DNA of 32,426 bases from Thermoflexibacter ruber. GTDB lineage: Bacteria > Bacteroidota > Bacteroidia > Cytophagales > Thermoflexibacteraceae. The position numbers and the translations under genes were made by a program. Positions 14,467-32,426 of the stretch are shown piece by piece (the stretch's first letter is position 1; each line of letters starts with the position of its first letter). The notes under the pieces were generated by a model. It ran no database searches, was not told where the DNA came from, and worked only from the letters and a program-made list of their open reading frames with translations. Location of the stretch: contig NZ_FONY01000019.1 in assembly GCF_900113045.1 (NCBI RefSeq), positions 1 through 32,426 on the forward strand, written 5' to 3'.

Positions 14467-15765
14467 GTGTCAGACGTAGTTCTCAAAGTAGAAAACTTAT
14501 ATAAAAGATACCGACTTGGTACAGTCGACAGGCAAGCCTTCAAAGAGGACGTAGCCAGCTGGTGGGCAAAGCTAAGAGGTAAACCTGACCCTTACGAGCA
14601 GTATATCACCAGCAATGAACTTGCCAATATCAAAGACAGCGAGAGCATGAAACATCTCAAAGCTCGCTATGTATGGGCTTTGCAAGACATCAACTTTGAA
14701 GTAAAGCGAGGAGAAATCGTAGGTATTATTGGGAAAAACGGAGCGGGGAAATCTACCCTGCTCAAAATACTTTCTAAAACCACCACCCCTACCAAAGGAC
14801 AGGTCAAAGTCAAAGGGCGTATCGCCAGTCTCTTAGAGGTAGGTACAGGCTTTCACGGGGAACTGACAGGAAGGGAAAATATCTACCTGAATGGGGCTAT
14901 CTTAGGCATGACTCGCCACGAAATCACGCGACACTTAGACGAAATCATAGACTTTGCAGGTGTAGAAGCATACATAGATACTCCCGTAAAACGTTACAGC
15001 AGTGGAATGTACGTCCGCCTTGCCTTTGCAGTAGGGGCACATTTACTATCTGACATCTTGATAGTAGATGAAGTACTTGCCGTAGGCGATGCAGAGTTCC
15101 AAAAAAAGTGTATTGGCAAGATGAAGGATGTAAGTACGGGAGAGGGCAAGACGGTGCTGTTTGTGAGCCATAATATGGTAAGCGTCAATAGCCTTTGCTC
15201 AACAGGGATTTATTTAAGAAATGGTAAGATAGAATTCATTGGAAATGTAAGGGCGGCTATAAATAAGTATTTGTCTAATGAAAATGCTAATGTAACTATC
15301 CGAGAGTGGAACACTTACTTAGGAGACGATGAGGCAAGATTAATCTCCGCAAAACTTATAGATGAAAATTACAATCATATAACGGTTGTAGATATTTCTC
15401 AAAAATTTGGCATTGAGTATGAATACGAAGTAGTAAAGAACGGCGCAGAAAAAATACCTAACATTCATTTGTATAATTCTAAAGGTGAATGCGTTTTTGT
15501 TTCAGGTGAAAAATCATCTAAGAACTTGACTCATAAAGGAAGATACAAAACTATTCTCTGGATTCCCTCTCACTTACTTAACGACGGCACTTATATCGCA
15601 GGAATAGCTTTATCAACAATGATTCCTTTAAAAGTCCACTTTTTTGATAAAGAGGCTATTGTTTTTAATGTGATAGAAAATGTTAATGGGCGAGATAATT
15701 TATATAATCAAGCTATTCCCGGAGTGATTCGCCCTAAATTAGAGTGGCAAACTCAAATTATATGA
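14467..15765 (+). CDS. Wzt-type polysaccharide-export ABC ATPase with C-terminal glycan-binding domain
   Basis: 432 aa, GTG start giving MSDVVLKVENLYKRYRLG. ATPase domain: Walker A GKNGAGKST within residues 86-97, the signature YSSGM at 177-181 (typical of Wzt/TagH, replacing LSGGQ), Walker B with D201 in IVDEVLAVGD, and the H-loop in FVSHNM. A Bacteroidota-type insert (about 24-75) precedes Walker A. Residues from about 265 form a beta-rich C-terminal domain like that of Wzt, which in E. coli O8/O9a binds the chemically capped, non-reducing end of the glycan. It powers export of an O-antigen or similar glycan across the inner membrane. Its permease partner (Wzm type) is not in the window. 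Its stop overlaps rfbF by 4 bp (ATGA), which suggests translational coupling. Confidence 0.92.
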   Translation: MSDVVLKVENLYKRYRLGTVDRQAFKEDVASWWAKLRGKPDPYEQYITSNELANIKDSESMKHLKARYVWALQDINFEVKRGEIVGIIGKNGAGKSTLLKILSKTTTPTKGQVKVKGRIASLLEVGTGFHGELTGRENIYLNGAILGMTRHEITRHLDEIIDFAGVEAYIDTPVKRYSSGMYVRLAFAVGAHLLSDILIVDEVLAVGDAEFQKKCIGKMKDVSTGEGKTVLFVSHNMVSVNSLCSTGIYLRNGKIEFIGNVRAAINKYLSNENANVTIREWNTYLGDDEARLISAKLIDENYNHITVVDISQKFGIEYEYEVVKNGAEKIPNIHLYNSKGECVFVSGEKSSKNLTHKGRYKTILWIPSHLLNDGTYIAGIALSTMIPLKVHFFDKEAIVFNVIENVNGRDNLYNQAIPGVIRPKLEWQTQII

Positions 15766-16544
15766 AAGTAGTCATTTTTGCAGGCGGACTGGGAACTCGC
15801 CTAATGGAAGAAACCGAAGCTCGCCCCAAACCGATGGTAGAAATTGGGGGAAAGCCTATGCTTTGGCACATCATGAAAATATATAGCCATTTTGGGTTCA
15901 ATGACTTTGTTGTATGCTTGGGATATAAGAGTTATATGATTAAAGAGTATTTCTTTAACTATTTTTTACACAACTCCGACATTACCATAGAACTCAAAAA
16001 CAATAATGTAAAAGTCCATAAAACTGACTCCGAAGCATTTAATATTACCCTTGTAGATACAGGTCTAAATACTAAAACGGCTGGCAGACTCAAACGCATA
16101 GAGAAGTACATTCAAGATGATGATTTTATGCTAACCTACGGCGATGGCGTTTCAGATATTGACATCAATCAATTAGTAGATTTCCATCGAGAGCATAACA
16201 AAATAGCTACTGTAACCGCTATACAACCCGAAGCCCGCTTCGGAGGCATGGAATTAGATGAGAATGGAGAGGTAAAAATTTTCAAAGAAAAGCCCAAAGG
16301 CGATGGCAGATGGATTAACGGCGGTTTTTTTGTATTAAAATCAAAAGTTTTTGCGTATCTCAATCACCCTAACATTGATGAAATCATGTGGGAAGATATG
16401 CCCTTAGAAAAACTTTCGCAAGATAGAGAACTTGTAGCTTACAAATACACAGGTTTTTGGAAATGTATGGACGCTTTGCGAGATAAAATTGAATTAGAAA
16501 ATCTCTGGAATACCAATCAAGCCAAGTGGAAAGTATGGCATTAA
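15762..16544 (+). CDS. rfbF: Glucose-1-phosphate cytidylyltransferase
   Basis: 260 aa from ATG 15762. The start overlaps the preceding TGA as ATGA; a longer frame start at 15744 would lie inside the ABC gene. It makes CDP-glucose from CTP and glucose-1-phosphate. The nucleotide-binding motif FAGGLGTRLMEETEARPKPM (residues 6-25) is the RfbF version of the sugar-nucleotidyltransferase loop. Further marks are MLTYGDGVSDID, RFGGMELDENG, FKEKPKGDGRWINGGFFV and the C-terminal YTGFWKCMDALRDK. All fit RfbF/DdhA rather than the dTTP- or UTP-dependent enzymes. First committed step of CDP-deoxysugar synthesis; the next gene encodes the next step. Confidence 0.95.
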   Translation: MKVVIFAGGLGTRLMEETEARPKPMVEIGGKPMLWHIMKIYSHFGFNDFVVCLGYKSYMIKEYFFNYFLHNSDITIELKNNNVKVHKTDSEAFNITLVDTGLNTKTAGRLKRIEKYIQDDDFMLTYGDGVSDIDINQLVDFHREHNKIATVTAIQPEARFGGMELDENGEVKIFKEKPKGDGRWINGGFFVLKSKVFAYLNHPNIDEIMWEDMPLEKLSQDRELVAYKYTGFWKCMDALRDKIELENLWNTNQAKWKVWH

Positions 16545-17611
16545 AATTTTTTGGAAATATTTATCAAAATAAAAAAGTATTTGTAACGGGACATACAGGC
16601 TTCAAAGGCACTTGGCTCTGCCTATGGCTCAAAGAATTAGGAGCAGACGTGATTGGTTATTCATTGCCTCTAAACGATAAAAACCAACATTTTGAAAGTC
16701 TAAACTTGCCTATAAAAAACTACTTTCAAGACCTGAATAACTACGAAGAATTAAATAAAGCCATACAAGAAAGCCAACCCGATATTGTATTTCATTTAGC
16801 GGCTCAATCTTTGGTGCGAGAGTCTTACCGAAATCCTATCTACACCTTTCAAACCAATCTGATAGGTACGCTCAATCTTTATGAAATTTGTACTAAAATT
16901 TTCTCTATCAAGGCAATTGTTTCTATTACTACTGATAAAGTGTACCAAAACGAAGAATGGTACTGGGGATACCGAGAAATAGACCGATTGGGCGGAAACG
17001 ACCCATACAGTGCCTCCAAAGCCTGTGTAGAAATAATGACAGAATCTTTTAGAAAGTCTTTCTTAAAAGAAAACCAAATTCTTTTAGCTACTGCAAGGGC
17101 AGGAAATGTAATAGGCGGTGGCGATTGGGCAAAAGACAGATTGATACCGGATATTATGCAGGCTTATCAAAATCAAGAAGTTCTAATCATTAGAAATCCC
17201 AAGTCAGTTAGACCTTGGCAACATGTCTTAGAACCTATTGCCGCTTATCTTCTGCTCGGGCAAAGATTATTAGAAAAAAAAGATAACTTTGCCACCGCTT
17301 GGAATTTCGGACCAGATGAGAATGATGCAGTCGCTGTTGAACAAGTTTTAGGGAAAATAAATCAGTTTTTGCCCAAAATTAAAATAAAATACGAAAGTTC
17401 TCATTTGCCAGAAGCTCAAATTTTGAAATTAGATTGCAGCAAAGCAAAAACAGAATTGCGATGGAAGCCTATTTGGAACGTAGATACAGCCATTCAGAAA
17501 ACAGCAGAATGGTACAAAGAATTTGTAGAAAATGGGCATATAATTTCAAAACAACAATTATACGAATACCTCACTGACGCTCAACAACAACAAACTATTT
17601 GGCTACAATAA
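16535..17611 (+). CDS. rfbG: CDP-glucose 4,6-dehydratase
   Basis: 358 aa from ATG 16535, overlapping rfbF by 10 bp. It converts CDP-glucose to CDP-4-dehydro-6-deoxyglucose with bound NAD. Extended SDR fold: GHTGFKG at 19-25 (NAD-binding), FHLAAQSLVRESY, the catalytic Thr-Asp-Lys in TTDKVYQNEEWYWGYRE (Lys instead of the Glu of RmlB, typical of CDP-glucose dehydratases), YSASK for the Tyr/Lys pair, and ARAGNVIGGGDWAKDRLIPD. Length is normal. The stop TAA shares its last A with the ATG of the next gene (TAATG). Confidence 0.95.
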   Translation: MALKFFGNIYQNKKVFVTGHTGFKGTWLCLWLKELGADVIGYSLPLNDKNQHFESLNLPIKNYFQDLNNYEELNKAIQESQPDIVFHLAAQSLVRESYRNPIYTFQTNLIGTLNLYEICTKIFSIKAIVSITTDKVYQNEEWYWGYREIDRLGGNDPYSASKACVEIMTESFRKSFLKENQILLATARAGNVIGGGDWAKDRLIPDIMQAYQNQEVLIIRNPKSVRPWQHVLEPIAAYLLLGQRLLEKKDNFATAWNFGPDENDAVAVEQVLGKINQFLPKIKIKYESSHLPEAQILKLDCSKAKTELRWKPIWNVDTAIQKTAEWYKEFVENGHIISKQQLYEYLTDAQQQQTIWLQ

Positions 17612-18174
17612 TGCTATTTGAATTTGAACATACACTTTTATCAAATCTTTGGCTCATTACGCCTAAACCCTTTCAAGATGAAAGAGGCTTGTTTTTTAGG
17701 TTTTTTTGCAAAAAAGAATTTGAAAAAATAGGTTTTTCAAAGGAATTTGCTCAGCTCAATCACTCTATCAATAAACTAAAAGGAACTATCAGAGGAATGC
17801 ACTATCAAGAACCACCTTTTGCTGAAACGAAGTTAGTACGGTGTATTAAAGGAAAAATTTTAGACGTAGTGGTAGATATTCGCCAAAATTCGCCTACTTT
17901 TTTACAACACTATGCAGTAGAACTCTCAGCAGAAAATAAAAGAATGCTACTTATTCCTGAAGGTTTTGCACATGGCTTTCAAACCTTAGAAGATGATACA
18001 GAAATTTTGTATCATCACACAAATTTTTACACGCCAAGTGCAGAACGAGGTTTAAGATACAATGATTTAATGCTCAATATTTCTTGGATAATGCTACCAA
18101 CGGCTATCTCTGAAAGAGATGCCAATTTTCCTTTACTTTCAAAAGACTTCAAAGGTATTTTTATTGAAAATTAA
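17611..18174 (+). CDS. RmlC-type sugar-nucleotide 3,5-epimerase, probably CDP-sugar specific
   Basis: 187 aa from ATG 17611, the usual RmlC length; the start overlaps the rfbG stop by one base. Cupin fold with the catalytic His64 in TIRGMHYQ, KLVRCIKGKILDVVVDIR, PEGFAHGFQTLEDD and YHHTNFYTPSAERGLRYND, which includes the aromatic residues of the active site. Homologues epimerise C3 and/or C5 of dTDP-4-dehydro-6-deoxyglucose. No dTDP-pathway gene is present here, and it sits right after rfbG, so its substrate is probably CDP-4-dehydro-6-deoxyglucose. Epimerisation at C5 would produce an L-sugar. Whether it acts on C3, C5 or both cannot be read from sequence. Confidence 0.85.
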   Translation: MLFEFEHTLLSNLWLITPKPFQDERGLFFRFFCKKEFEKIGFSKEFAQLNHSINKLKGTIRGMHYQEPPFAETKLVRCIKGKILDVVVDIRQNSPTFLQHYAVELSAENKRMLLIPEGFAHGFQTLEDDTEILYHHTNFYTPSAERGLRYNDLMLNISWIMLPTAISERDANFPLLSKDFKGIFIEN

Positions 18175-18176
18175 AT

Positions 18177-19403
18177 ATGAATTGCAGATTTGATAATTTA
18201 TCACTTACACACGTTTTTGTAGATTTAGGGTTTAGTCCTCCATCTAATTCTTTTCTAAGTGCCTCACAACTCAATGAACCCGAAGTTTATTATCCTTTGA
18301 AGTTATACGTGAGCGAGCGAACTTTTTTGGTACAAATAGATGAATACAAAAAAGCCAATGAAATTTTTAGTCAAGAATATGTTTATTTCTCATCTTATTC
18401 AAGTTTTTGGTTGGCTCATTGCAAGAGCTACACCGAAATGATAATGAAACGATTTGAGCTAAATGCAGCTTCGCAAGTTATAGAGATTGCTTCAAACGAT
18501 GGTTACTTGTTGCAGTATTTCAAAGAAAAAAATATTCCTGTATTGGGCATTGAGCCTACCTTGAGCACTGCCCAAGTTGCTCAACGAAAAGGAATACCTA
18601 CTTGGATTGAGTTTTTCGGGACTGATTTAGCTAAAAAAATAGTAGCCGAGAACAAACAAGCCGATTTATTGATTGGCAATAACGTACTGGCTCACGTACC
18701 CAATCTCAATGATTTTGTAGCAGGCTTAAAAATTGCCCTCAAACCCAAAGGCATTGTTACAATGGAGTTTCCTCATTTGATGCAACTGAATGAAAACAAT
18801 CAATTTGATACCATTTATCATGAGCATTTTTCTTATTTTTCCTTTTTAACAGTAAAACAAATTTTTGAAAAACACGGGCTAACTTTATTTGAGGTAGAGG
18901 AAATTCCTACGCACGGTGGCTCTTTGAGAATTTATGCCAAACACGCTGAAAATAATGACTTGCCTTGTAGCAAAAATGTAGATAACTTACTTGCCAAAGA
19001 AATTGCTAAGGGAATGAATACACTGGCATACTATCAAGGCTTTCAGCAGAAAGTAGATAAGATAAAGTATGATTTTTTGAGTTTCTTATTAGAGCAAAAA
19101 AAGTTGGGTAAAAAAGTTGCTGGATATGGAGCGGCAGCCAAAGGAAATACTTTGCTCAATTATTGTGGAATTAAAAAAGATTTAATTAGCTTTGTAGCAG
19201 ATAAATCGCCATACAAACAGGGTAAATATCTGCCGGGTAGTCATATTCCTGTGGTAAGTGAGGAAGAACTAAAAGCAGAAAAGCCCGATTTTGTGGTCAT
19301 TTTTCCTTGGAATATTCAAAAAGAAATTGAAGAGCAACTAAGCTACATCAGAAGTTGGAACGGAAAGTTTGTAGTAGCTATCCCTGAATTGAAAATATGG
19401 TAA
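18177..19403 (+). CDS. Sugar-nucleotide C-methyltransferase, probably at C3 of the 4-keto sugar
   Basis: 408 aa with the three domains of NDP-4-keto-sugar C-methyltransferases. Residues 1-60 are the Methyltransf_13 domain (FVDLGFSPPSNSFL, YYPLKLYV). About 95-205 is the Rossmann domain with SAM motif VIEIASNDGYLL. From about 285 is Methyltransf_14 (GYGAAAKGNTLLNYCG, ADKSPYKQGKYLPGSHIPV). YHEHFSYFS near 218-226 is the conserved catalytic His/Tyr/Glu block. Relatives methylate C3 of a 4-keto-6-deoxy sugar nucleotide. The usual zinc ligands are largely missing: only Cys3 is left of the first pair (CRFD), and the second pair reads SERTF, so the zinc site is probably lost. Starts 2 bp after the epimerase gene and overlaps the reductase by 7 bp. 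Confidence 0.88.
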   Translation: MNCRFDNLSLTHVFVDLGFSPPSNSFLSASQLNEPEVYYPLKLYVSERTFLVQIDEYKKANEIFSQEYVYFSSYSSFWLAHCKSYTEMIMKRFELNAASQVIEIASNDGYLLQYFKEKNIPVLGIEPTLSTAQVAQRKGIPTWIEFFGTDLAKKIVAENKQADLLIGNNVLAHVPNLNDFVAGLKIALKPKGIVTMEFPHLMQLNENNQFDTIYHEHFSYFSFLTVKQIFEKHGLTLFEVEEIPTHGGSLRIYAKHAENNDLPCSKNVDNLLAKEIAKGMNTLAYYQGFQQKVDKIKYDFLSFLLEQKKLGKKVAGYGAAAKGNTLLNYCGIKKDLISFVADKSPYKQGKYLPGSHIPVVSEEELKAEKPDFVVIFPWNIQKEIEEQLSYIRSWNGKFVVAIPELKIW

Positions 19404-20260
19404 AAGTTTTGGTTACAGGAGCAACAGGTTTTATTGGAAATCATATTGTAGCTGAACTTTTGAGAAGAAATGTAAAGGTTATAGCTACATCAAGAAACAT
19501 AGAAAAAGCAAAAAAATTTGAATGGTTTTCGCAAGTTACTTATGTGCCCTGCACTTTACCCATTGATGAAAGGACAAATTATTATGAATACTTTCATCGT
19601 CCATCTCACATAATACATTTAGCTTGGGAAGGTTTGCCCAATTATTTGGATGTATTTCATTTTGAACGCAATTTGTACCATAATTATTTTTTTTTGAAAA
19701 ACCTAATAATCAACGGCTTAAAGGATGTTTCTGTAATAGGAACTTGTTTAGAGTATGGTTTAGTAAATGGTTGCCTGTCAGAACAAATGCCTACAAATCC
19801 ACATACAGCATATGGATTAGCTAAGGACACTTTGAGAAGATTTTTAGAACTTATGCACAAACAATATGATTTTAATTTTAAGTGGATTAGACTATTCTAT
19901 ACCTACGGGAAAGGACAAAGTGAAAAATCTTTATTAGCTCAATTAGATAAAGCATTAGAAAATGGAGAAAGAACTTTCAATATGTCAGGAGGAGAGCAGA
20001 TAAGAGATTATTTACCTGTTGAAAAGGTAGCTGAATATATCGTAGAGATTTCCTTGCAACAAGCTATGCAAGGCATATTTAATTGTTGTAGTGGTAATCC
20101 AATATCTATCAGAAAACTTGTAGAAAATTACCTCACCTCAAAAGGTAAAAAGATAGCTCTCAATTTAGGTTATTTTTCATATCTTACTTATGAGCCATTT
20201 GCTTTTTGGGGAGATAATACTAAACTAAAATCGGTTATCAAAAATGATGATTATAGATAA
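19397..20260 (+). CDS. SDR-family 4-ketoreductase for the CDP-deoxysugar
   Basis: 287 aa, extended short-chain dehydrogenase/reductase. The nucleotide-binding loop GATGFIG is at 8-14, IIHLAWEGLPNY follows, and the catalytic Tyr and Lys are in AYGLAKD, with an IRLFYTYGKGQ substrate segment after that. RfbG already provides the dehydratase and the RmlC-type enzyme the epimerase. The remaining step in the set is reduction of the 4-keto group after C-methylation, which this enzyme could do. Substrate assignment is inference from gene order. Overlaps the previous gene by 7 bp (ATGGTAA) and the next by 17 bp. Confidence 0.82.
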   Translation: MVKVLVTGATGFIGNHIVAELLRRNVKVIATSRNIEKAKKFEWFSQVTYVPCTLPIDERTNYYEYFHRPSHIIHLAWEGLPNYLDVFHFERNLYHNYFFLKNLIINGLKDVSVIGTCLEYGLVNGCLSEQMPTNPHTAYGLAKDTLRRFLELMHKQYDFNFKWIRLFYTYGKGQSEKSLLAQLDKALENGERTFNMSGGEQIRDYLPVEKVAEYIVEISLQQAMQGIFNCCSGNPISIRKLVENYLTSKGKKIALNLGYFSYLTYEPFAFWGDNTKLKSVIKNDDYR

Positions 20261-21320
20261 CTACTCTAACAATAGTGCTACTTGTATTTATAGACAAAGT
20301 CAGTTACCTATTTTTCAAAATAAAGTTTATAATTCTGTTGCAGAAGCTCAAAATGCTTTATGTGGTGAAATAGAACTTGTGCAAGATAATGTATCTGGTT
20401 TCATTTATAATGCCAAATTTGATAGTAGTTTAATGGTTTATGATGAAAGCTATCAAAACGAACAATCCAACTCACCCTTTTTCAGAAAGCATCTTGAAGA
20501 AGTATTAAAGCTTTTAATACATTTAGGCATTCGAGATAAAAAAGTAGTAGAGATAGGATGTGGCAAAGGATACTTTCTTGAAATGATGCGACAATCAGGA
20601 ATAGATTGTATTGGCTTTGACCCAACTTACGAAGGCGAAAATGAATATGTCTTAAAAGAGTTTTTTTCTGAAAAAACAAATATAAAAGCCGATGTAATTA
20701 TTCTCAGGCATACATTAGAACATATTCCTCGTCCATTTACTTTTTTACATACTATTGCAAAGTCTAATGATTATCAAGGGTATATATTTATAGAAGTGCC
20801 TACATTTGATTGGATAGCTAAAAAAGAAGCATTTTGGGATATATTTTATGAGCATTGCAATTATTTTACAGAAAATACTCTAAAAAAAATGTTTCATAAA
20901 GCTCAAACAGGATATCTTTTTGGAGGTCAGTATATATATCTATGGGCTAAATTAGCTGATTTGAAAAAACAAATAGAGGAAAAATCTGACTTTCAGAAAG
21001 TATCTTTCAATCCAACTGCTAAAATTGAAACAATAAAAGATAGACTTCAAAAACAAAAAGACATAGCTATTTGGGGAGCTGGTGCAAAAGGCAATACATT
21101 TCTAAATTTATTAGACCCCCAAAGAAAGTTGATTAATTTTGTAGTAGATATTAATCCTGCTAAACAGAATAAGTTCATTGCAAAAACAGCACATCCAATT
21201 TTTTCGCCTGATATTCTCAAAAAAGAACCTATCAATAACGTGTGGGTAATGAATAAAAATTATTTAGATGAGATAAAAAGAAGTATTAACAATACAAACA
21301 TAAACTTTCACGTAATTTGA
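20244..21320 (+). CDS. Second C-methyltransferase-family protein (Methyltransf_23/14 type)
   Basis: 358 aa; ATG 20244 or 20247 both possible. It has a SAM motif VVEIGCGKGYFLEMM, RHTLEHIPRP (post-II loop), a YEHCNYFT block matching YHEHFSYFS of the first enzyme, and a C-terminal Methyltransf_14 domain (WGAGAKGNTFLNLL). The N-terminal part resembles family members that start with paired cysteines, reading PIFQNKVY and later VSGFIYNAKFDSSL. Here the expected CxxC before GFI is replaced by DNVSGFI, so zinc ligands are missing again. It could methylate another sugar or a different carbon. Paralogue of the gene at 18177 but clearly divergent. 6 bp before the next gene. Confidence 0.8.
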   Translation: MMIIDNYSNNSATCIYRQSQLPIFQNKVYNSVAEAQNALCGEIELVQDNVSGFIYNAKFDSSLMVYDESYQNEQSNSPFFRKHLEEVLKLLIHLGIRDKKVVEIGCGKGYFLEMMRQSGIDCIGFDPTYEGENEYVLKEFFSEKTNIKADVIILRHTLEHIPRPFTFLHTIAKSNDYQGYIFIEVPTFDWIAKKEAFWDIFYEHCNYFTENTLKKMFHKAQTGYLFGGQYIYLWAKLADLKKQIEEKSDFQKVSFNPTAKIETIKDRLQKQKDIAIWGAGAKGNTFLNLLDPQRKLINFVVDINPAKQNKFIAKTAHPIFSPDILKKEPINNVWVMNKNYLDEIKRSINNTNINFHVI

Positions 21321-22066: not shown

Positions 22067-23008
22067 ATGAATAATTTACCATTAGTTTCAATTGGTGTAC
22101 CAGTCTATAACGAAGAAAAGTATTTGGCAGAAACAATTGAGTCTGCAATCAATCAAACATATCGAAACTTAGAAATTATTATTTCAGATAATTGTTCAAC
22201 TGACAACTCTTTTGAGATTGCCCAAAAGTATGCTAATCAAGATAGTAGAATCAGATTAATAAAACAGCCAAAAAATATAGGAGCATATGAAAATTTTATT
22301 GAACTATACAGGCTCTCGCAAAGTAAATATTTCTTTATGTGGCTTGGTGGTCATGATGTGCTTGCAAGTAACTTTGTTGATAAAGCTATAAAAAAGTTTT
22401 ATACAAATGAAAATGTTGCCTTAGTGTACCCTAAGTCTATATTTTTTTCTGAAAGTAGTCCTAATGAAGGAACAGCAGATTCAGATATACACACTTCAGG
22501 GCTTGACTCTATGAAAAGAATGATAAAAATCTTAGAAAATCTCAATTACTGCACTGCCATTCATGGATTATTTAAGAAAGATGTTTTGGCTAAGTGTATA
22601 GGTAATAAAAACGGTATAGACCATTTGATTCTTTTTTTAGTTGCATTTTATGGGCATTTGTTACCTCACGACAGTGAAAGCATTGGCTTATATAGGCGTA
22701 TTATAAGAAAGAAAGAAATGAAAGAGCAACACTTACAGCGACTAGAACAATATGGTATGTCAAAAAACATTTATTTTTTATGTGCAATGAGTCATATTAA
22801 GGCAATCAGTCATCTCAACATTACTAATAAAGAAAAGCTATTTTTATTAATAAAAGGTAAGCCATTTATAAATAGAAGTTTACATCCATTTGAGTGGCAA
22901 GAATCTTTAAAATATTTTATTTTTCAAGATTTTGATTTTAGAAGCTCATTTTATATTGTTATGCTGCTCTTAATGAAGAAGATAAAAAATTTATTTAGTC
23001 GTTTATGA
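22067..23008 (+). CDS. GT2 glycosyltransferase with GGHD in place of DxD
   Basis: 313 aa, GT-A fold, family 2: VSIGVPVYNEEKYLAETIESAINQ, then IIISDNCSTDNS (nucleotide binding) and NIGAYENF. At the place of the metal-binding DxD the sequence is MWLGGHDVL (about 99-107), so the first Asp is missing. I recall the same GG/GA-HD variant in other GT2 proteins of glycan loci, so it is probably a subfamily trait and not decay. A hydrophobic or amphipathic C-terminus (YIVMLLLMKKIKNLF) may touch the membrane. It probably adds one sugar of the repeat or the terminal structure on undecaprenyl-linked intermediates in the cytoplasm. Last of the tightly packed block; a 182-bp gap follows. Confidence 0.88.
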   Translation: MNNLPLVSIGVPVYNEEKYLAETIESAINQTYRNLEIIISDNCSTDNSFEIAQKYANQDSRIRLIKQPKNIGAYENFIELYRLSQSKYFFMWLGGHDVLASNFVDKAIKKFYTNENVALVYPKSIFFSESSPNEGTADSDIHTSGLDSMKRMIKILENLNYCTAIHGLFKKDVLAKCIGNKNGIDHLILFLVAFYGHLLPHDSESIGLYRRIIRKKEMKEQHLQRLEQYGMSKNIYFLCAMSHIKAISHLNITNKEKLFLLIKGKPFINRSLHPFEWQESLKYFIFQDFDFRSSFYIVMLLLMKKIKNLFSRL

Positions 23009-23190: not shown

Positions 23191-23574
23191 ATGTGGCTAA
23201 AAGAGCAGAAAGCAAAGTTTAGGAAGATGAGCAAAACCCAGTGCGAAGAACTTATCGGTATGGGCAATGCTCTCAATGCTCATACGTTTTACAAGGCTTG
23301 CGAAAGCTATCTGAGAGCAGTTTTGGTAGAATGTATGCCGCTCGGAACAGAGATATTTTTGTTTGGCTCGCGGGCTAATCATACCGCAGGCAGGATTTCT
23401 GATATTGATATTGGATTCAGGAGTCCTTCGGAAATAAGCCCCGTACTGTTAAGTGAAATAGCAGATATTATAGAAGATTCTTTTGTGCCATTCAGGGTCG
23501 ACTTGGTGGACTTTTCCAAGGTCAGCAAAGATTTTGAGCAAGAAGCCCTTAAAAAAATAGTAAGATGGACATAA
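23191..23574 (+). CDS. MNT-type minimal nucleotidyltransferase, MntA-like
   Basis: 127 aa. The nucleotidyltransferase motif is complete: GS at 59-60 in LFGSRAN, ten residues to D71 and D73 (SDIDIGF), and a third acidic residue in RVDLVDF (D104). Proteins of this size partner with HEPN proteins; in characterised MntA-HepT pairs the MNT protein transfers AMP to a Tyr of the HEPN toxin and silences it. The N-terminal 55 residues before GS are longer than usual, and Met24 is an alternative start. It overlaps the next gene by 10 bp. Poorly related in function to the glycan genes around it, so probably a mobile module. Confidence 0.85.
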   Translation: MWLKEQKAKFRKMSKTQCEELIGMGNALNAHTFYKACESYLRAVLVECMPLGTEIFLFGSRANHTAGRISDIDIGFRSPSEISPVLLSEIADIIEDSFVPFRVDLVDFSKVSKDFEQEALKKIVRWT

Positions 23575-23975
23575 AACTGAAAGCCTTTAAAAAAAGCGTG
23601 CTGAGTCTTTCTCAACTTTTCTCCCTTAATTTGCAAGACTATGAGAGCAACCCGGTAGTTATAGATGGCTTGAAAAACGGAATTGCCCAAAAGTTTGAAT
23701 ATACTACAGAGCTATGCTGGAAAACAATTAAAAAGTTTTTGCAGGAAAAAGAGGGTATAGAAAGTAAAAGCCCTAAACAGAGCATTAAAAATTTTTTTGA
23801 TACTGGCTACTTGACTGAGGCAGATTACCTCCTTCTCATAGAAATTTTGGTTAGTAGAAACGAACTTAGCCATGTATATGACGAAGAAACTTTTGAAAAA
23901 ATTATTGGGAAAATAGCTATTTATCTACCTATCTTCCATCGCGTATTACTTATCTTAGAACAAAATTGGGAATAA
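23565..23975 (+). CDS. HEPN-domain protein, HepT/HI0074-like partner of the MNT
   Basis: 136 aa, all-helical: KFEYTTELCWKTIKKFLQEKEG is the hallmark of the HI0074 'nucleotidyltransferase substrate-binding' family. The RX4HXY motif is complete, with R98, H103 and Y105 in RNELSHVYD. In HepT-type toxins R and H form the RNase site and Y is the residue AMPylated by the antitoxin. The label 'toxin' is by analogy; HI0074-like members are less well tested. It follows the MNT with a 10-bp overlap, so both are translated together. 36 bp separate it from the next glycan gene. Confidence 0.85.
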   Translation: MDIKLKAFKKSVLSLSQLFSLNLQDYESNPVVIDGLKNGIAQKFEYTTELCWKTIKKFLQEKEGIESKSPKQSIKNFFDTGYLTEADYLLLIEILVSRNELSHVYDEETFEKIIGKIAIYLPIFHRVLLILEQNWE

Positions 23976-24011: not shown

Positions 24012-25610
24012 ATGACTCCCCAAGTAAGTATCATTATTCCTTGTTATAACAGGGCTAATTTGATTGGCGCTACTTTAGAGTCAGTAATTGGGCAAACCTA
24101 TCAAAATTGGGAGTGCATAGTGGTAGATGATTATTCTACCGACCAAAGTAGAGAGACGATACAAGCATACTGTGCCAAAGATACAAGAGTAAAATATTTA
24201 CTTAATCACCGAAAAAAGGGTGCGCAAGGGGCAAGAAATACAGGAATCTTAGAAAGTAAAGGTAAGTACATACAATTTTTTGACTCAGACGATGTAATGC
24301 TTCCTCAATTAATAGAAGCGTTATATGCTCACATATTTCAAAGCAACGCTGATATTGTTACATGTTTTTCCTATGTAGTAGATGAAAATGGGAAAGAAAT
24401 AGGTAAATTTGAGTGGGTAAATAAGGGAAATATCCTTGAAGGGTTATTGAATGGGAATAATTATGTAGATTATAATTGCGCTTTGATAAAAAAAGAACTA
24501 TTATTGAAAATCGGTTTAACAGATGAGTACTGTCCCTCTTTTCAAGAATGGGATACGCATATTAGATTAAGCGAATTTGCCCAATATTCTACTGTTCATC
24601 GATTGCTTATCAAGTATTACAGACGTACAAGTGGAACTATCTCAAGCGATGATAAAAGAACAGTAGAGGGATATTTATATATTTTAAATAAACATAGGAA
24701 TAAGTTTTTGACTAATATAGATGTTTTTCAAAAACAAGGCTTAACAGCTTTATCATTAGCAGAGAAAACGAATGATATAAAATACATTAAAAAAGTAAAA
24801 AGCAAACTCACTAAGTTGATTCCAAGATTTAGAAAACTATTAAATAAAGATCAACCAAGCATGTATCGTAAAGTCATAAATTTAGCCGAACAGTTATATC
24901 ATAAGGTTTTTACCACTATCTCAGTAGCTGAGCCAGCAAAGCCCAAAAGAAAAAGTGGGAATTATATTAGTTGTGAAGAAACTGTAAATGAAGCAAATAA
25001 GCGCGGGCTGAGTGTAGGTGAGTATGTGGAAGAGATTTGGAATCAGCAAGGTCAATCAGAGGAAGTTATCTTAGAATTACACTCCTATGGATTTTTTCAA
25101 ACAGGCAGCACTATGTTAGAGATAGGTGGGGGAACGGGAAGGTATATTGACCATGTATTGAAAAAATATCCTGTTAAAAATATTATTTCATACGAAATCG
25201 CAGAAGACTGGAGTTATTATCTGGAAGAGAAATATGCTCCTATACTTGTTAGGCGAGATTCAGACGGTTTCAATTTAAAATTTGAGAAAGATAGTAGCAT
25301 TGACAATTTGGTAGCGCATGGAGTATTTGTGTATCTGCCTCTGCTACACGCATTTCATTACTTCCGAGAAATAGCCCGAGTAACTAAAAATAAAGGTTTA
25401 GTAGCTTTTGATATTTATACAGCCGAGCAATTTGATATTCCGATGATTGATAATTGGTTGGACAAAGGAGGGCATTATTACCCTGTAATTATTAGCCAAC
25501 AACTCGTAGTTGATTATTTTAGTAAATTGTGCTTTACTTATTTAGGCAGTTTCAATAATAAACATGGTTATTCTTTTTCAACATATTTAGTATTTCAAAA
25601 AAATGATTGA
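24012..25610 (+). CDS. GT2 glycosyltransferase fused to a SAM methyltransferase
   Basis: 532 aa, two domains. Residues 1-235 are a GT-A family 2 glycosyltransferase (VSIIIPCYNRANLIGATLES, VVDDYSTDQS, GAQGARNTGI, DxD in FFDSDDVML, and EWDTHIRL as the probable acceptor/catalytic segment). About 240-340 is a helical, basic linker. About 345-532 is a class I methyltransferase with SAM motif MLEIGGGTGRY at 368-378 and a VFVYLPLLHAFHYFREIARV segment. The domain order suggests sugar addition followed by methylation of the same product, perhaps as a chain cap. Overlaps the cupin gene by 8 bp. Confidence 0.88.
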   Translation: MTPQVSIIIPCYNRANLIGATLESVIGQTYQNWECIVVDDYSTDQSRETIQAYCAKDTRVKYLLNHRKKGAQGARNTGILESKGKYIQFFDSDDVMLPQLIEALYAHIFQSNADIVTCFSYVVDENGKEIGKFEWVNKGNILEGLLNGNNYVDYNCALIKKELLLKIGLTDEYCPSFQEWDTHIRLSEFAQYSTVHRLLIKYYRRTSGTISSDDKRTVEGYLYILNKHRNKFLTNIDVFQKQGLTALSLAEKTNDIKYIKKVKSKLTKLIPRFRKLLNKDQPSMYRKVINLAEQLYHKVFTTISVAEPAKPKRKSGNYISCEETVNEANKRGLSVGEYVEEIWNQQGQSEEVILELHSYGFFQTGSTMLEIGGGTGRYIDHVLKKYPVKNIISYEIAEDWSYYLEEKYAPILVRRDSDGFNLKFEKDSSIDNLVAHGVFVYLPLLHAFHYFREIARVTKNKGLVAFDIYTAEQFDIPMIDNWLDKGGHYYPVIISQQLVVDYFSKLCFTYLGSFNNKHGYSFSTYLVFQKND

Positions 25611-26031
25611 AAGGATTATACATCAAGACGAGCTATTAGCTGTTATTATAAGGGCTAACTACTCTAAAGAAGGGATTGAGTTTTTTACTACCGATGATTC
25701 TTCCCAGCAGTTAGGCTATATGAAGCGTCCCAAAGATTATACTATCCCTCCACATAGACACAATTTAGTGCCTCGTGAAGTACATTTGACCCAAGAAGTA
25801 TTGTTTATAAAAAGTGGCAAAGTAAGGGTAGATTTTTACAGTAATAGCCAGCATTATATAGAAAGTCGCATATTAACTTCAGGAGACGTAATACTTTTAG
25901 CAGACGGTGGACATGGTTTTAAAATGTTAGAGCCAAGTGAGATGATAGAAGTAAAGCAAGGACCGTACTGTGGCGAAACTGATAAAATTAGATTTTCCCC
26001 TGTCAAAGAAGAACATATAAATATAAAATAA
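25603..26031 (+). CDS. Cupin-fold protein of glycan loci, function unknown
   Basis: 142 aa. The cupin fold is indicated by PPHRHNLVPREVHLTQEVLF (metal-site motif 1 with three His and a Glu) and a second motif around DVILLADGGHGFKML. The protein has no similarity that I can see to RmlC. Cupins of this kind recur in Bacteroidota and Leptospira glycan loci, next to methyltransferases and glycosyltransferases, without known function. It might be an isomerase or an auxiliary of the fused enzyme, whose gene it overlaps by 8 bp. 3 bp before the next gene. Confidence 0.75.
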   Translation: MIERIIHQDELLAVIIRANYSKEGIEFFTTDDSSQQLGYMKRPKDYTIPPHRHNLVPREVHLTQEVLFIKSGKVRVDFYSNSQHYIESRILTSGDVILLADGGHGFKMLEPSEMIEVKQGPYCGETDKIRFSPVKEEHINIK

Positions 26032-26034
26032 GTC

Positions 26035-26799
26035 ATGCCAGAAGATAATACTAACTTCAAACTATACAGTGCCTATTACGATTTGCTTTACCAAGATAAA
26101 GATTATTATGCAGAGGCAGATTATAGCTATCAAAAAATAATAAAGTACAATCCTACTGTTCAATCAGTGATAGAATTAGGTTGCGGTACAGGAAATCATG
26201 CTCAATATTTATCTAAGAAAGGGCTAAAAATAACAGGCATAGAAAAAAGCAGTAGCATGGTAGCAGAAGCAAAAAAAAAACAAATTAATAACTTCTTTCC
26301 TATGGAGGGAGATATTAGACATTTAGATTTGCAAGATACTTTTGATGCCGCTATTGCTCTTTTTCACGTGATTAGCTATTTGAATGATAACAATGACTTG
26401 ATTTCCTGCTTTCAAGGAGTGTATAAGCACTTAGCAGACAATGGCATTTTTATTTTCGATGTTTGGTACACCCCTACAGTACTTATTCAAAAGCCCGAAA
26501 TTCGTATCAAAAGGTTAGAAAATGAATATTTGAAAATTACGAGAATTGCAGAGCCAAAGTCGCTTATAAACAAAAGTATAGTTAATGTAAACTATGAGAT
26601 TTTGATAGAAGATAAAAAAAATTCTCGTCTAATTACATTTCAAGAGATGCATTCTATGCGGCATTTTACGATAAATGAATTGTATTTTTTAGCTGAGATA
26701 ACGAGATTTGAAATAGTAGAATATTGCGAGTTCGTTTCTGATAATCCATTAAGTGAACAAACTTGGGGAGCTGTATTTATAATGAAGAAAAAATATTGA
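26035..26799 (+). CDS. Class I SAM-dependent methyltransferase
   Basis: 254 aa. N-terminal YSAYYDLLYQDKDYYAEADY, then SAM motif I VIELGCGTGNHAQYL, GIEKSSSMVAEA (motif II, acidic residue binding ribose) and FDAAIALFHVISYL. These are typical of the Methyltransf_25/ubiE-like group found in glycan loci. A beta-rich C-terminal part (KSIVNVNYEILIEDKKNSR, MRHFTINELYFLAE) completes it. The acceptor is unknown; sugar hydroxyl or amino groups are the natural guess. Composition is very AT-rich. 11 bp before the GT-B gene. Confidence 0.85.
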   Translation: MPEDNTNFKLYSAYYDLLYQDKDYYAEADYSYQKIIKYNPTVQSVIELGCGTGNHAQYLSKKGLKITGIEKSSSMVAEAKKKQINNFFPMEGDIRHLDLQDTFDAAIALFHVISYLNDNNDLISCFQGVYKHLADNGIFIFDVWYTPTVLIQKPEIRIKRLENEYLKITRIAEPKSLINKSIVNVNYEILIEDKKNSRLITFQEMHSMRHFTINELYFLAEITRFEIVEYCEFVSDNPLSEQTWGAVFIMKKKY

Positions 26800-26810
26800 A
26801 TATTCTTAAT

Positions 26811-28076
26811 ATGAAGATAATAATTATACATCCCGAGGGCAACTTTAATAATAATCCCAATCTTTTAGCAATAACCCAAATTCTTATTGAAAATAACTAT
26901 CAAGTTGATATACTTCTCCCTAAAAAAAATATTTACCAGAAATCTATCCATCCGATGAATAGATTGTTTTTCTATGAGGAACACGATAGTTCTATATTAA
27001 GTGAAAATTATAAACTTGTCATTGGAGTTGATTTGGGCATTATAGATGCAGCACTTATCGCTACTATAAAACAAGTGCCATTAGGTTATATTTCATACGA
27101 AATCTTTTTTGAAGATGAAGTAGGCTATTACCCTAAGCAATTAGAAATAATCGCTTGCAGAGCAGTAGATTTTGTTATATGTCAAGATATTATAAGAGCA
27201 GAGCATCTATCTAAGCAAAATGAGATTCCGCTTGATAAATTTATCTTGATACCTGTAGCAGGATTAGACATTGTGCGAAAGGATAAAAATAAATTTCTTC
27301 ATGATAAACTTTCTATACCTCACAACCGTAAAATCGCTTTGCTAATGGGTAGCGTTGCAAAATTTACTATGGCTGAGGAAATAATAGAAAATACACAATA
27401 TTGGGACAAGAGCTGGTGTTTAGTTGTTCATGATAGGTATGGAAAAACTCCGTTAAAAGAAAAATATACATATTTACCTAATGTATATTTTTCAGAAGAA
27501 CCAACTGATTCATTTGAGTCGCTTTCTACACTTATCGCATCAGTAGATGTGGGTATTGCACTTTATCAACAACAAACAGGCGATATTTATCAAGGAAAAA
27601 ATATTAAATATATTGGTTTATCCTCTGGAAAAATAGCCACAATGTTACAAAATGGAAAGCCAGTCATTGTTAATCAAATTGGGAAATATGCTGAGTTAAT
27701 ATTGAAATATAATGCGGGTAGAGTAATTAGTTCCATTAATGAATTACCGCAGAATCTATCTGAAATAGATAATGTTCCAGGTAGTATCGCTGAGAATTGT
27801 TATAATCTATTTACAGAACATCTATCAGCAAGACTTTACGCTAAGGTTTTAACAAATACAATCTCAGAAATAATAAATCGTAACCATTCAGTAAAAAGTT
27901 TAGATATATTAAAAAATCAGATAAATACCTTCTTTCATATTATACATCTAAGAAAAAAACAGATAGAAGCAGAAAGATTAAAAGAAAATGTATATAAATC
28001 ATATAGTTATAGAATAGGTCACCTTATTACCCAGCCTTATAGATTTATATATAAAATACTTGAATATTTGAAATAA
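26811..28076 (+). CDS. GT-B glycosyltransferase (family 4-like)
   Basis: 421 aa from ATG 26811. A frame start at 26763 would overlap the previous gene by 37 bp, and MKIIIIHPEGNFNNNPN is the natural first beta-strand of the GT-B fold. The C-terminal half has the nucleotide-sugar pattern: LLMGSVAKF, VDVGIALYQQ, YIGLSSGKIATMLQNGKPVI and a following EL, the GT4-type E-x7-E region in weak form. The end SYRIGHLITQPYRFIYKILEYL is a common membrane-touching tail of Bacteroidota glycosyltransferases. Sugar and acceptor unknown. Last gene of the AT-rich block; a 101-bp gap follows. Confidence 0.75.
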   Translation: MKIIIIHPEGNFNNNPNLLAITQILIENNYQVDILLPKKNIYQKSIHPMNRLFFYEEHDSSILSENYKLVIGVDLGIIDAALIATIKQVPLGYISYEIFFEDEVGYYPKQLEIIACRAVDFVICQDIIRAEHLSKQNEIPLDKFILIPVAGLDIVRKDKNKFLHDKLSIPHNRKIALLMGSVAKFTMAEEIIENTQYWDKSWCLVVHDRYGKTPLKEKYTYLPNVYFSEEPTDSFESLSTLIASVDVGIALYQQQTGDIYQGKNIKYIGLSSGKIATMLQNGKPVIVNQIGKYAELILKYNAGRVISSINELPQNLSEIDNVPGSIAENCYNLFTEHLSARLYAKVLTNTISEIINRNHSVKSLDILKNQINTFFHIIHLRKKQIEAERLKENVYKSYSYRIGHLITQPYRFIYKILEYLK

Positions 28077-28177: not shown

Positions 28178-28924
28178 ATGTTAAAAAAAATAATTCAATC
28201 TCTATTTCATCGCTTAGGCTACCAAGTCAATAAGCTATCTTCTATTCCTATGCAATATGTTGCAGTAGAAAATAAGTTTACTATGCCAAAAGCTATAGAA
28301 AGAGTTGCTCAAAGAAATATTGAAATCAATACCGTGATTGACGTAGGCGCATCGGACGGTCGCTGGTCAGAAAGCTGCATCATGCATTATCCGCAAGCTA
28401 ACTATTTGCTCATAGAAGCGCAGCAAGCCCATGAAAAGGGCTTACAGGCTTTTAAAGCTCTCTATGCAAATGCGAACTATGTGATTGCTGCGGCAGGCAA
28501 CAAGATAGGAGAAATTTATTTTGACAACTCAGGGCTTTTTGGAGGGCTTGCTGCGGATGTGCCTTTTGAAGGAAACTGCATTGTTGTTCCTGTAACTACT
28601 ATTGACGAACAGGTAAAAAAGTACCAACTTCAAGCCCCTTACCTCATCAAATTAGATACACATGGCTACGAAGTACCTATCTTAGAAGGAGCAAGAGAAA
28701 CGCTAAAAAAAGCAAACATTGTCATCATAGAAACCTATAATTTTCAAATTGCCAAAGATAGCCTTCGCTTTTGGGAAATGTGCAATTACATGGAAGATTT
28801 AGGCTTTCTACCGATTGACATGGTAGATTTTATGCACAGAAAGAAAGATAATGCTTTTTGGCAAATGGATACTGTTTTTATTAGGAAAGATAGAGCCGAA
28901 TTTCAATCCAATGATTACGAATAA
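28178..28924 (+). CDS. FkbM-family methyltransferase
   Basis: 248 aa. The SAM site is VIDVGASDGRWSESCI, followed by YLLIEAQQAHEKGLQAF and the FkbM hallmark PYLIKLDTHGYEVPILEGARETL, with VIIETYNFQ after it. FkbM proteins O-methylate sugars or polyketides, and in glycan loci they usually act on a sugar hydroxyl. The gene follows the GT-B gene after 101 bp, so it may be read from the same transcript or from a weak promoter in the gap. A probable new transcript starts after it (28929-28936). Confidence 0.9.
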   Translation: MLKKIIQSLFHRLGYQVNKLSSIPMQYVAVENKFTMPKAIERVAQRNIEINTVIDVGASDGRWSESCIMHYPQANYLLIEAQQAHEKGLQAFKALYANANYVIAAAGNKIGEIYFDNSGLFGGLAADVPFEGNCIVVPVTTIDEQVKKYQLQAPYLIKLDTHGYEVPILEGARETLKKANIVIIETYNFQIAKDSLRFWEMCNYMEDLGFLPIDMVDFMHRKKDNAFWQMDTVFIRKDRAEFQSNDYE

Positions 28925-31219: not shown

Positions 31220-32426
31220 TTGAATAAAGAAACACTCACCGAACTAATAAAGAATCCCTCTCTGCTTACCCCTCAGTACGAGTCAGAGTTGAAGCAGATG
31301 ACAAAGGTTTATCCTTACTTCCAAGCCATTTATGTGCTTTATGCAAAGGCACATCTGACTAATGACACTATTGAGAAGGCAGCAGTTCGCTCCTTAGACC
31401 GTAATCTGCTCAGAAATATACTAATCAAAAACTATAACCCTAATCAAGGCGATGCTTTGGTGCATTTGCTCAAAAACGTAGAGCAAGTAAATGCTTTTGA
31501 GAAACTTAAAGCTGACAAAATCACCACAGAAAAACCTCAAGAGGAAGAATGGTCTATCAAGGAAAATACAAAAAAAGGGGAAGTAACAGATAAAGTAATA
31601 CAAATAGATGAAAGTGATGAATCTGTAGCAAGCATTATTTATAACAGCCAAGATGACCTTCATTTGGAGAAATTGAAAACAGATGCTTGGGAAGAGAAGT
31701 TTATCAGTCCAATAGATGATGATATTGTATTGGATTTCCAAAAAGAAGTAGCTTCATTTGACTCTGAATTAAGTATTGACGATGAGCCGACCTACAACCC
31801 TTTTGCTAATGACCTCTTTGATAAAGAAATAGAAATAGACGAAGATGTAAGGACGCAAACGGAATTTTTAGTATATAATGATGAATTGGTAAAACCGATT
31901 ACTGATGATTCCGAAGAGCAGCCTGTGGTTTATCCTGAAAAGTTTGAGTATGAAATAGAAAAACAGGAAAATGACTACTCGCTTGAAGTTCAGCAGATAG
32001 TCAATACTTTACCTAATTTTATTACTTCTACGGATAACTTTTTTGAGGAAGCCACCATTGAAATAAATAAATTTGACATAAATAAAGAGTTAGAAAAAGA
32101 AGTTACTGAAATAGAAAGTCTTAGTAATCCTATTGAGGAAAACTTTTTTGCTGACTTTTCTTCTGAAAAAGAAAATCAACTTTTGGACACTTACTACTTG
32201 CGTAAGGAAGAAGAAACAATTGCATCAAGGACAGAAGAAATATCAGAATATATCGACGAGGATAAAATAACTTTGGAGATAGACGCTTATTATTTGCGTA
32301 AAGAGGAGGAGGCGATAGAGTTTGCTAACTTATTGCCAGCCAGCGAAGTAAGTGAGGAAATAGCGGAAGTAGCTGCTGTTTCCATAGATTTGTTAGATGC
32401 TTATTATTTGCGCAAAGAGGAGGAGG
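31220..32426 (+). CDS. Long acidic repeat protein, 5' part only (runs off the window)
   Basis: At least 402 codons, open to the last base with no stop. TTG 31220 is the likely start: an in-frame stop lies at 31178 and no ATG or GTG lies between. It gives NKETLTELIKNPSLLTPQY. Residues 1-100 are helical with the motif YPYFQAIYVLYAKAH and RSLDRNLLRNILI, which I recognise from a family of Bacteroidota proteins of unknown function near lptE. After that comes a very acidic, probably disordered region. Near the end of the window the motif (L/I)D(T/A)YYLRKEEE is repeated three times. Probably cytoplasmic, as no signal peptide is seen. Function unknown. Confidence 0.75.
   Translation, partial: MNKETLTELIKNPSLLTPQYESELKQMTKVYPYFQAIYVLYAKAHLTNDTIEKAAVRSLDRNLLRNILIKNYNPNQGDALVHLLKNVEQVNAFEKLKADKITTEKPQEEEWSIKENTKKGEVTDKVIQIDESDESVASIIYNSQDDLHLEKLKTDAWEEKFISPIDDDIVLDFQKEVASFDSELSIDDEPTYNPFANDLFDKEIEIDEDVRTQTEFLVYNDELVKPITDDSEEQPVVYPEKFEYEIEKQENDYSLEVQQIVNTLPNFITSTDNFFEEATIEINKFDINKELEKEVTEIESLSNPIEENFFADFSSEKENQLLDTYYLRKEEETIASRTEEISEYIDEDKITLEIDAYYLRKEEEAIEFANLLPASEVSEEIAEVAAVSIDLLDAYYLRKEEE
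32183..32425 (+). repeat. Three coding repeats of the YYLRKEEE motif
   Basis: 11-codon units start at 32183, 32279 and 32393 (spacing 32 and 38 codons), each reading D(T/A)YYLRKEEE. The DNA of the last two copies is almost identical, while the intervening acidic sequence varies. More copies may follow beyond the window. Confidence 0.85.

What the first reader, a model, noticed from the sequence alone, without database searches (positions are those of the whole stretch)
24012..25610. Glycosyltransferase-methyltransferase fusion that could cap the chain
A GT2 domain with intact DxD is fused to a complete SAM-methyltransferase. Chain-terminating methylation is known to be read by the Wzt C-terminal domain (E. 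coli O8/O9a), and the locus has a Wzt with such a domain at 14467. The fusion is a candidate for the terminator that sets chain length and licenses export.
Basis: inference. Interest (0 to 1): 0.55.

Follow-up and report, generated by a model that had tools for sequence, protein, structure and literature searches.

The report
Fused sugar-adding and methyl-adding enzyme
A bacterium carries one gene that joins a sugar-adding enzyme to a methyl-adding enzyme inside a set of genes for a surface sugar coat; it probably adds and decorates one building block, and whether it also caps the chain for export is open.

Summary
Window 24012-25610 is one open frame of 532 aa: a GT2 glycosyltransferase with an intact DSD motif, then a complete class I SAM methyltransferase (MT). 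Wzt at 14467 has a Wzt_C domain, just over Pfam's cut-off. The fusion is rare: absent from 58 relatives, and none of 168 GT2 homologues is fused.

The MT half has unfused relatives: a 242-aa protein (43% identical) in one other genome of the class, beside the same cupin-like gene and 11 kb below a Wzm-Wzt pair, and proteins in two Streptomyces plasmids. The four nearest relatives of the GT half stand alone, near that cupin-like gene. The fusion therefore looks like part of a sugar-tailoring cassette.

Capping is possible but not favoured. In 54 loci the gene directly after a long wzt is often a modification enzyme (Methyltransf_25 in 14, against 2 one gene further on; Sulfotransfer_3 in 8). 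Known terminators WbdD and WsaE lie in that slot. Here it holds rfbF; the fusion is the 11th gene, has no room for a long coiled-coil ruler, and competes with five other MT-domain genes.

Verdict: a real variant of known GT-MT fusions, with a terminator role unproven (about 0.2).

The parts
24012..25610 (+). GT2-methyltransferase fusion, 532 aa
24027..24497 (+). GT2 domain (residues 6-162; DSD at 91-93)
   Evidence: PF00535 1.5e-39; conserved in 28 aligned sequences; GT-A fold
24957..25607 (+). class I SAM methyltransferase half (residues 316-532); core 25116-25409
   Evidence: PF08241 residues 369-466; homologues in G677 and two Streptomyces plasmids
25603..26031 (+). cupin-like protein of the cassette; no Pfam family, weak WbuC-cupin match below cut-off
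   Evidence: 53-70% identical in L013-L016
26035..26799 (+). methyltransferase like nucleotide-sugar N,N-dimethyltransferases
   Evidence: PF13649; best PDB match 3bxo, 7.8e-16
26763..28076 (+). protein without a Pfam family, weakly like a GT4-type ORF in L014
14467..15765 (+). Wzt with C-terminal domain (Wzt_C at 15322-15678)
15744..16544 (+). rfbF (glucose-1-phosphate cytidylyltransferase), occupies the slot after wzt
   Evidence: TIGR02623 391.5 bits
16526..17611 (+). rfbG (CDP-glucose 4,6-dehydratase)
   Evidence: TIGR02622 470.6 bits
18177..19403 (+). sugar C-methyltransferase (PF08421, PF08484)
20244..21320 (+). second methyltransferase with PF13489 and PF08484
21327..22064 (+). CmcI / rhamnosyl O-methyltransferase family protein: rival cap candidate
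   Evidence: PF04989 4.9e-95
22067..23008 (+). second GT2 glycosyltransferase
   Evidence: PF00535 1.7e-28
28178..28924 (+). FkbM-family methyltransferase: rival cap candidate
   Evidence: PF05050 6.6e-15; 64% homologue in L156

Best explanation
The protein is a two-step tailoring enzyme of a surface glycan, probably LPS-linked. The GT2 half transfers one sugar from a nucleotide donor at the inner membrane face; the MT half, held next to it, methylates that residue or its neighbour, most likely on a hydroxyl. It works with the adjacent cupin-like protein and the N-methyltransferase-like protein as a cassette that makes and attaches an unusual methylated sugar. The gene arose by joining a cassette GT2 gene to an MT that elsewhere is a separate gene beside the same cassette. 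The glycan is exported by Wzm-Wzt. Shown: domains, motifs, neighbourhood, unfused relatives. Inferred: substrates, O- rather than N-methylation, position of the residue in the chain, joint action of the halves.
For: The four best-scoring relatives of the GT half (L013, L014, L016, L015) are the only four of 80 loci with the cupin-like gene. The cupin-like gene has a DegT aminotransferase within two genes in 13 of 15 loci in which the script kept its ORF, and the N-methyltransferase relative in 9 of 15. The MT half's only strong relative among 394 other genomes of the class (G677, 6.2e-70) is a separate gene two genes from the same cupin-like gene, which is 62% identical. The neighbour at 26035 resembles nucleotide-sugar N,N-dimethyltransferases. 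SAM and DSD motifs are intact. 0 of 168 GT2 homologues exceeds 430 aa.
Against: The cassette's DegT gene is absent from the window (one search finds DegT-family genes only elsewhere), so the cassette is incomplete here. The GT2 beside the MT in G677 is only 27% identical to the GT half over 134 aa, so only the MT and cupin-like parts recur. The Streptomyces relatives of the MT lie beside FemAB- and MurJ-type genes, not in a known glycan locus. No substrate is known.
Confidence: 0.55

Rival explanations
1. The fusion is the chain terminator: it adds or methylates the last residue, stops growth, and the Wzt C-terminal domain reads that methyl for export.
For: Wzt_C domain present. In 5 of 7 loci whose Wzt C-terminal domain resembles this one, the gene after wzt is a methyltransferase, which suggests that this domain type reads methyl caps. 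The slot gene is missing here, so another MT may have taken over. The relative in G677 is about 11 kb below Wzm-Wzt. WsaE is a fused precedent (PMC2943079, passages).
Against: rfbF is in the slot; the fusion is the 11th gene, 8.2 kb on. No room for a long coiled coil. Five other MT-domain genes. The GT half's relative in L014 has a separate protein with hexapeptide, kinase-like and MT domains directly after wzt. The Wzt of G677 gave no Wzt_C match. The window's Wzt C-terminal domain alone matched no solved structure at E 1 or better, so methyl binding cannot be read from it.
Confidence: 0.2
2. The cap is a CDP-derived deoxysugar made by the genes directly after wzt, or a methyl from the CmcI- or FkbM-type gene; the fusion acts elsewhere in the chain.
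For: wzt followed by rfbF recurs in two other genomes of the family (L159, where the C-terminal domain is 37% identical, and L160). Sugar caps such as Kdo are known (PMC9445017, PMC11231755, passages). TylF- or CmcI-type MTs occur directly after wzt in L133, L158 and L086.
Against: No glycosyltransferase in the window can be assigned to the CDP sugar. L159 and L160 have no recognised glycosyltransferase genes after rfbF in the stretches fetched.
Confidence: 0.15
3. The two halves share only co-expression and act on different substrates, for example the MT on a nucleotide sugar.
For: Many sugar MTs act on nucleotide sugars (general knowledge). In G677 the two activities are separate genes.
Against: Fusion usually marks linked steps; the linker is short (about 45-65 residues).
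Confidence: 0.1

Closest known systems
WsaE of Geobacillus stearothermophilus (PMC2943079, passages)
   Same: MT and GT activities in one protein in a locus with Wzm-Wzt
   Different: WsaE: MT first, two GT domains, gene directly after wzt, methyl cap shown in vitro. Here: GT first, one GT domain, 11th gene after wzt, no activity known
K. pneumoniae O7 ORF6 (PMC11231755, abstract and passages)
   Same: MT and GT2 modules in one protein of an ABC-exported O antigen
   Different: ORF6 has MT, kinase, coiled coil and two GT2 modules; here no kinase and no long coiled coil
WbdD of E. coli O8/O9a (PMC3482155, passages)
   Same: class I MT acting in an ABC-dependent O-antigen pathway with cap-reading Wzt
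   Different: WbdD has no GT domain, has a coiled coil (residues 460-708 in O9a), and its gene follows wzt (PMC5529442, passages)
GT2-MT ORF in L167 (G827, 565 aa)
   Same: GT2 first, MT second
   Different: my reading of the sequence; MT half only weakly related (2.4e-7 over part); probably an independent fusion

Membership tests
GT2 glycosyltransferases | PF00535 fold with DXD | tested here: met
class I SAM methyltransferases | Methyltransf_11 domain with glycine-rich SAM motif | tested here: met
WbdD/WsaE-type chain terminators | gene directly downstream of wzt | tested here: not met
   rfbF at 15744 follows wzt; fusion is the 11th gene
WbdD/WsaE-type chain terminators | long coiled-coil ruler (in the E. 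coli and Klebsiella terminators) | tested here: not met
   GT to about residue 250-270, MT from 316, so about 45-65 linker residues with prolines; longest helix predicted there 282-305, low confidence. No dedicated coiled-coil predictor was run
WbdD/WsaE-type chain terminators | methylation of the non-reducing terminal residue that stops growth | not testable with these tools
   needs glycan analysis
cap-dependent Wzm-Wzt export | Wzt with C-terminal carbohydrate-binding domain | tested here: met
   PF14524 31.9 bits, cut-off 30.4
cap-dependent Wzm-Wzt export | domain binds a methyl cap | tested here: inconclusive
   residues 265-432 alone match no PDB chain at E 1 or better; full Wzt aligns to A. 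aeolicus Wzt mainly in the ATPase part

The most novel reading that the evidence does not exclude
A single-protein capper without a ruler: the GT half adds the last, unusual sugar and the MT half seals it, so that sugar addition, methyl cap and export licence are coupled in one polypeptide.
Probability: 0.2. Interest if true: 0.6.

Novelty: new variant of a known kind. Interest (0 to 1): 0.4.

Why it matters
GT-MT fusions in ABC-exported glycans are few, and this one has the reverse domain order and an MT subfamily of unknown substrate. The wider gain is the test applied to it: in 54 loci the gene after a long wzt is enriched for methyltransferases and sulfotransferases, and single cases are formyl-, pyruvyl- or hexapeptide-type transferases. 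If that slot marks the cap enzyme, cap chemistry could be predicted from genomes, including sulfate caps, and tested directly.

Tried and rejected
MT-half structure: two AlphaFold jobs gave no usable model, because the only relatives at hand were too few or came from sources that the tool does not accept. Foldseek was run on the full model only and speaks for the GT half. A 3-sequence MT profile against the PDB gave only arsenic methyltransferases at about 0.004. Viral contigs and phage records gave no relative of the MT half. The MT half was not found in the 91 other loci held. PDB search with the cupin-like protein returned immunoglobulin Fc chains, best 6e-8, which I take as chance.

The rejected idea that the GT half's cassette is tied to ABC export: flippase or polymerase genes over Pfam's cut-off lie near the cupin-like gene in L016, L116, L118 and L123, and Wzt in L013, L014 and L124.

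Limits of the slot count: the 54 Wzt were chosen by an ATPase match and length of 380 aa or more; Pfam Wzt_C was not run on them. The loci came mostly through a GT2 search, which inflates GT2 counts further downstream. Relatedness is not corrected, and several loci share a genus. Pfam lists show only the first 25 families, so families with one member may be hidden. Two Fisher tests used assumed second rows (4 of 54, 3 of 54) and are not used. The sulfotransferase difference against position +3 is not significant alone (8 of 54 against 2 of 51, p 0.09). Individual Pfam scans of the 'other' slot genes covered 30 of 31; L039 was scanned only in the pooled.

Full report
What is there. Window 24012-25610 (+) encodes 532 residues without a stop. 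Residues 6-162 match PF00535 (1.5e-39) and residues 369-466 match all of PF08241 (28.6 bits, cut-off 21.2). D91 and D93 are invariant in 28 aligned sequences. The model has block pLDDT of 84-98 up to residue 270, apart from 69 at 201-210; its MT half is not modelled. Foldseek places the GT half with GT-A enzymes. The MT motif and a later YE pair are invariant in four homologues.

Locus. After Wzt (14467-15765; Wzt_C 31.9 bits, cut-off 30.4) come rfbF, rfbG, an RmlC-type epimerase, two proteins with C-methyltransferase domains, an epimerase, a CmcI-type MT, a GT2, a nucleotidyltransferase pair, the fusion, a cupin-like protein, an N-methyltransferase-like protein, a protein without a Pfam family, an FkbM MT and a CMP-Kdo synthetase-type gene. 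The fusion is the 11th gene after wzt, and five other genes have MT domains. A Wzm-like permease lies near the end of another contig. In ten wzt stretches fetched from the same family no Wzm match appeared either.

Rarity. At E 1e-40 the full protein was found in none of 58 relatives. The MT half was found in none of 290 other genomes of the order at 1e-8, and in 394 others of the phylum only twice and weakly, about 1e-5. A three-sequence profile found one strong and one weak match in 394 others of the class. These samples overlap. Of 168 GT2 homologues (200 aa or more, 1e-15) in 80 loci, none exceeds 430 aa.

Relatives of the MT half. Two of 72,556 plasmid records, both Streptomyces, encode it alone at 33-35% identity over 96%; in pFRL4 it lies beside FemA/FemB- and MurJ-annotated genes. 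In genome G677 it is a 242-aa gene, 43% identical, followed by a deacetylase-like gene (my reading), a GT2 and the cupin-like gene at 62%. That GT2 is only 27% identical to the GT half. Wzm and a 431-aa Wzt lie upstream, about 11 kb from the MT; this Wzt gave no Wzt_C match at 1e-3, while another contig gave one below cut-off.

Relatives of the GT half. The four best (L013, L014, L016, L015) are separate genes of 292-317 aa and are the only four of 80 loci with the cupin-like gene. In 15 cassette loci in which the cupin ORF was kept, a DegT gene lies within two genes in 13 and the N-methyltransferase relative is present in 9. That relative matches nucleotide-sugar N,N-dimethyltransferases, best 3bxo, 7.8e-16. 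The window has cupin-like and N-methyltransferase-like genes but no DegT. Cassette loci also occur with flippase or polymerase genes over cut-off in L016, L116, L118 and L123, so the cassette is not bound to ABC export.

Test of the terminator idea. Caps are read by the Wzt C-terminal domain, which may bind a methylated sugar or a special sugar (PMC9445017, PMC11231755, passages). In known systems wbdD and wsaE follow wzt directly (PMC5529442, PMC2943079, passages). I therefore compared the genes at positions +1, +2 and +3 after a wzt of 380 aa or more in 54 loci, one of them titled UBP6 and the rest Bacteroidota by title or phylum search. Members matching Methyltransf_25: 14 of 54, 2 of 54, 2 of 51 (Fisher p 0.002 for both comparisons, relatedness not corrected). 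Sulfotransfer_3: 8 of 54 at +1, not in the list at +2 (so at most 1), 2 of 51 at +3. FkbM and Methyltransf_24: 4 each at +1, not listed at +2 or +3. GT2 PF00535: not listed at +1 (at most 2), 25 of 54 at +2, 18 of 51 at +3, the last two partly by the way loci were found. In the same family, of 8 assessable wzt loci outside the window's genome, +1 is an MT in 3 (L153, L156, L158), DegT in 2 (L154, L157), rfbF in 2 (L159, L160) and without a Pfam family in 1 (L161). In seven loci whose Wzt C-terminal domain resembles the window's, +1 is an MT in 5. No slot gene has the fused MT as its best seed match.

Reading. The window's Wzt type is often served by a methyl-adding enzyme in the slot, yet here the slot holds rfbF. 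The fusion may have taken that role, but so may the CmcI- or FkbM-type gene, or the cap may be a CDP-derived sugar. It also lacks space for a long coiled coil, which PMC11231755 (abstract) calls characteristic of terminators; WsaE's methylation was independent of length in vitro (PMC2943079, passage), so a ruler may not be universal. The best-supported account is a sugar-tailoring enzyme of a cassette; the terminator role stays at about 0.2.

Literature. Searches in the held open-access library listed no paper on this fusion or on a slot count in Bacteroidota; most subscription papers are not held. The names DesVI and TylM1 for the N-methyltransferases are recalled; the PDB listing says N,N-dimethyltransferase or N-methyltransferase.

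Noticed in passing
54 loci listed, e.g. L083:8230-9033, L053:6058-7002: The gene directly after a long wzt is enriched for methyltransferases and sulfotransferases, with single formyl-, pyruvyl- and hexapeptide-type cases: a possible genomic marker of cap chemistry, including sulfate caps.
   Followed up: partly
L014:8158-9993: A 611-aa protein directly after wzt joins hexapeptide, kinase-like (30.0 bits, below cut-off 31.7) and methyltransferase domains, recalling methyl-phosphate terminators.
   Followed up: no
15744-20260: CDP-glucose genes with a C-methyltransferase and epimerases suggest a C-methyl-branched deoxysugar.
   Followed up: no
23191-23975: A nucleotidyltransferase gene overlapping an NTase_sub_bind gene, like an MNT-HEPN toxin-antitoxin pair (my reading), sits inside the glycan locus just before the fusion.
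   Followed up: no
14467-15765 and L153-L162: wzt genes of the family keep the ATPase half (58-86% identical) but differ in the C-terminal domain (25-37% or no match), and no Wzm match was seen in the stretches fetched.
   Followed up: partly
L167:1415-3112: A 565-aa GT2-MT ORF in another genome, with a different MT half: fusions of this order may arise repeatedly.
   Followed up: no
31220-32425: ORF with repeated YYLRKEEE-type motifs; the contig beyond the window contains a masked stretch.
   Followed up: no
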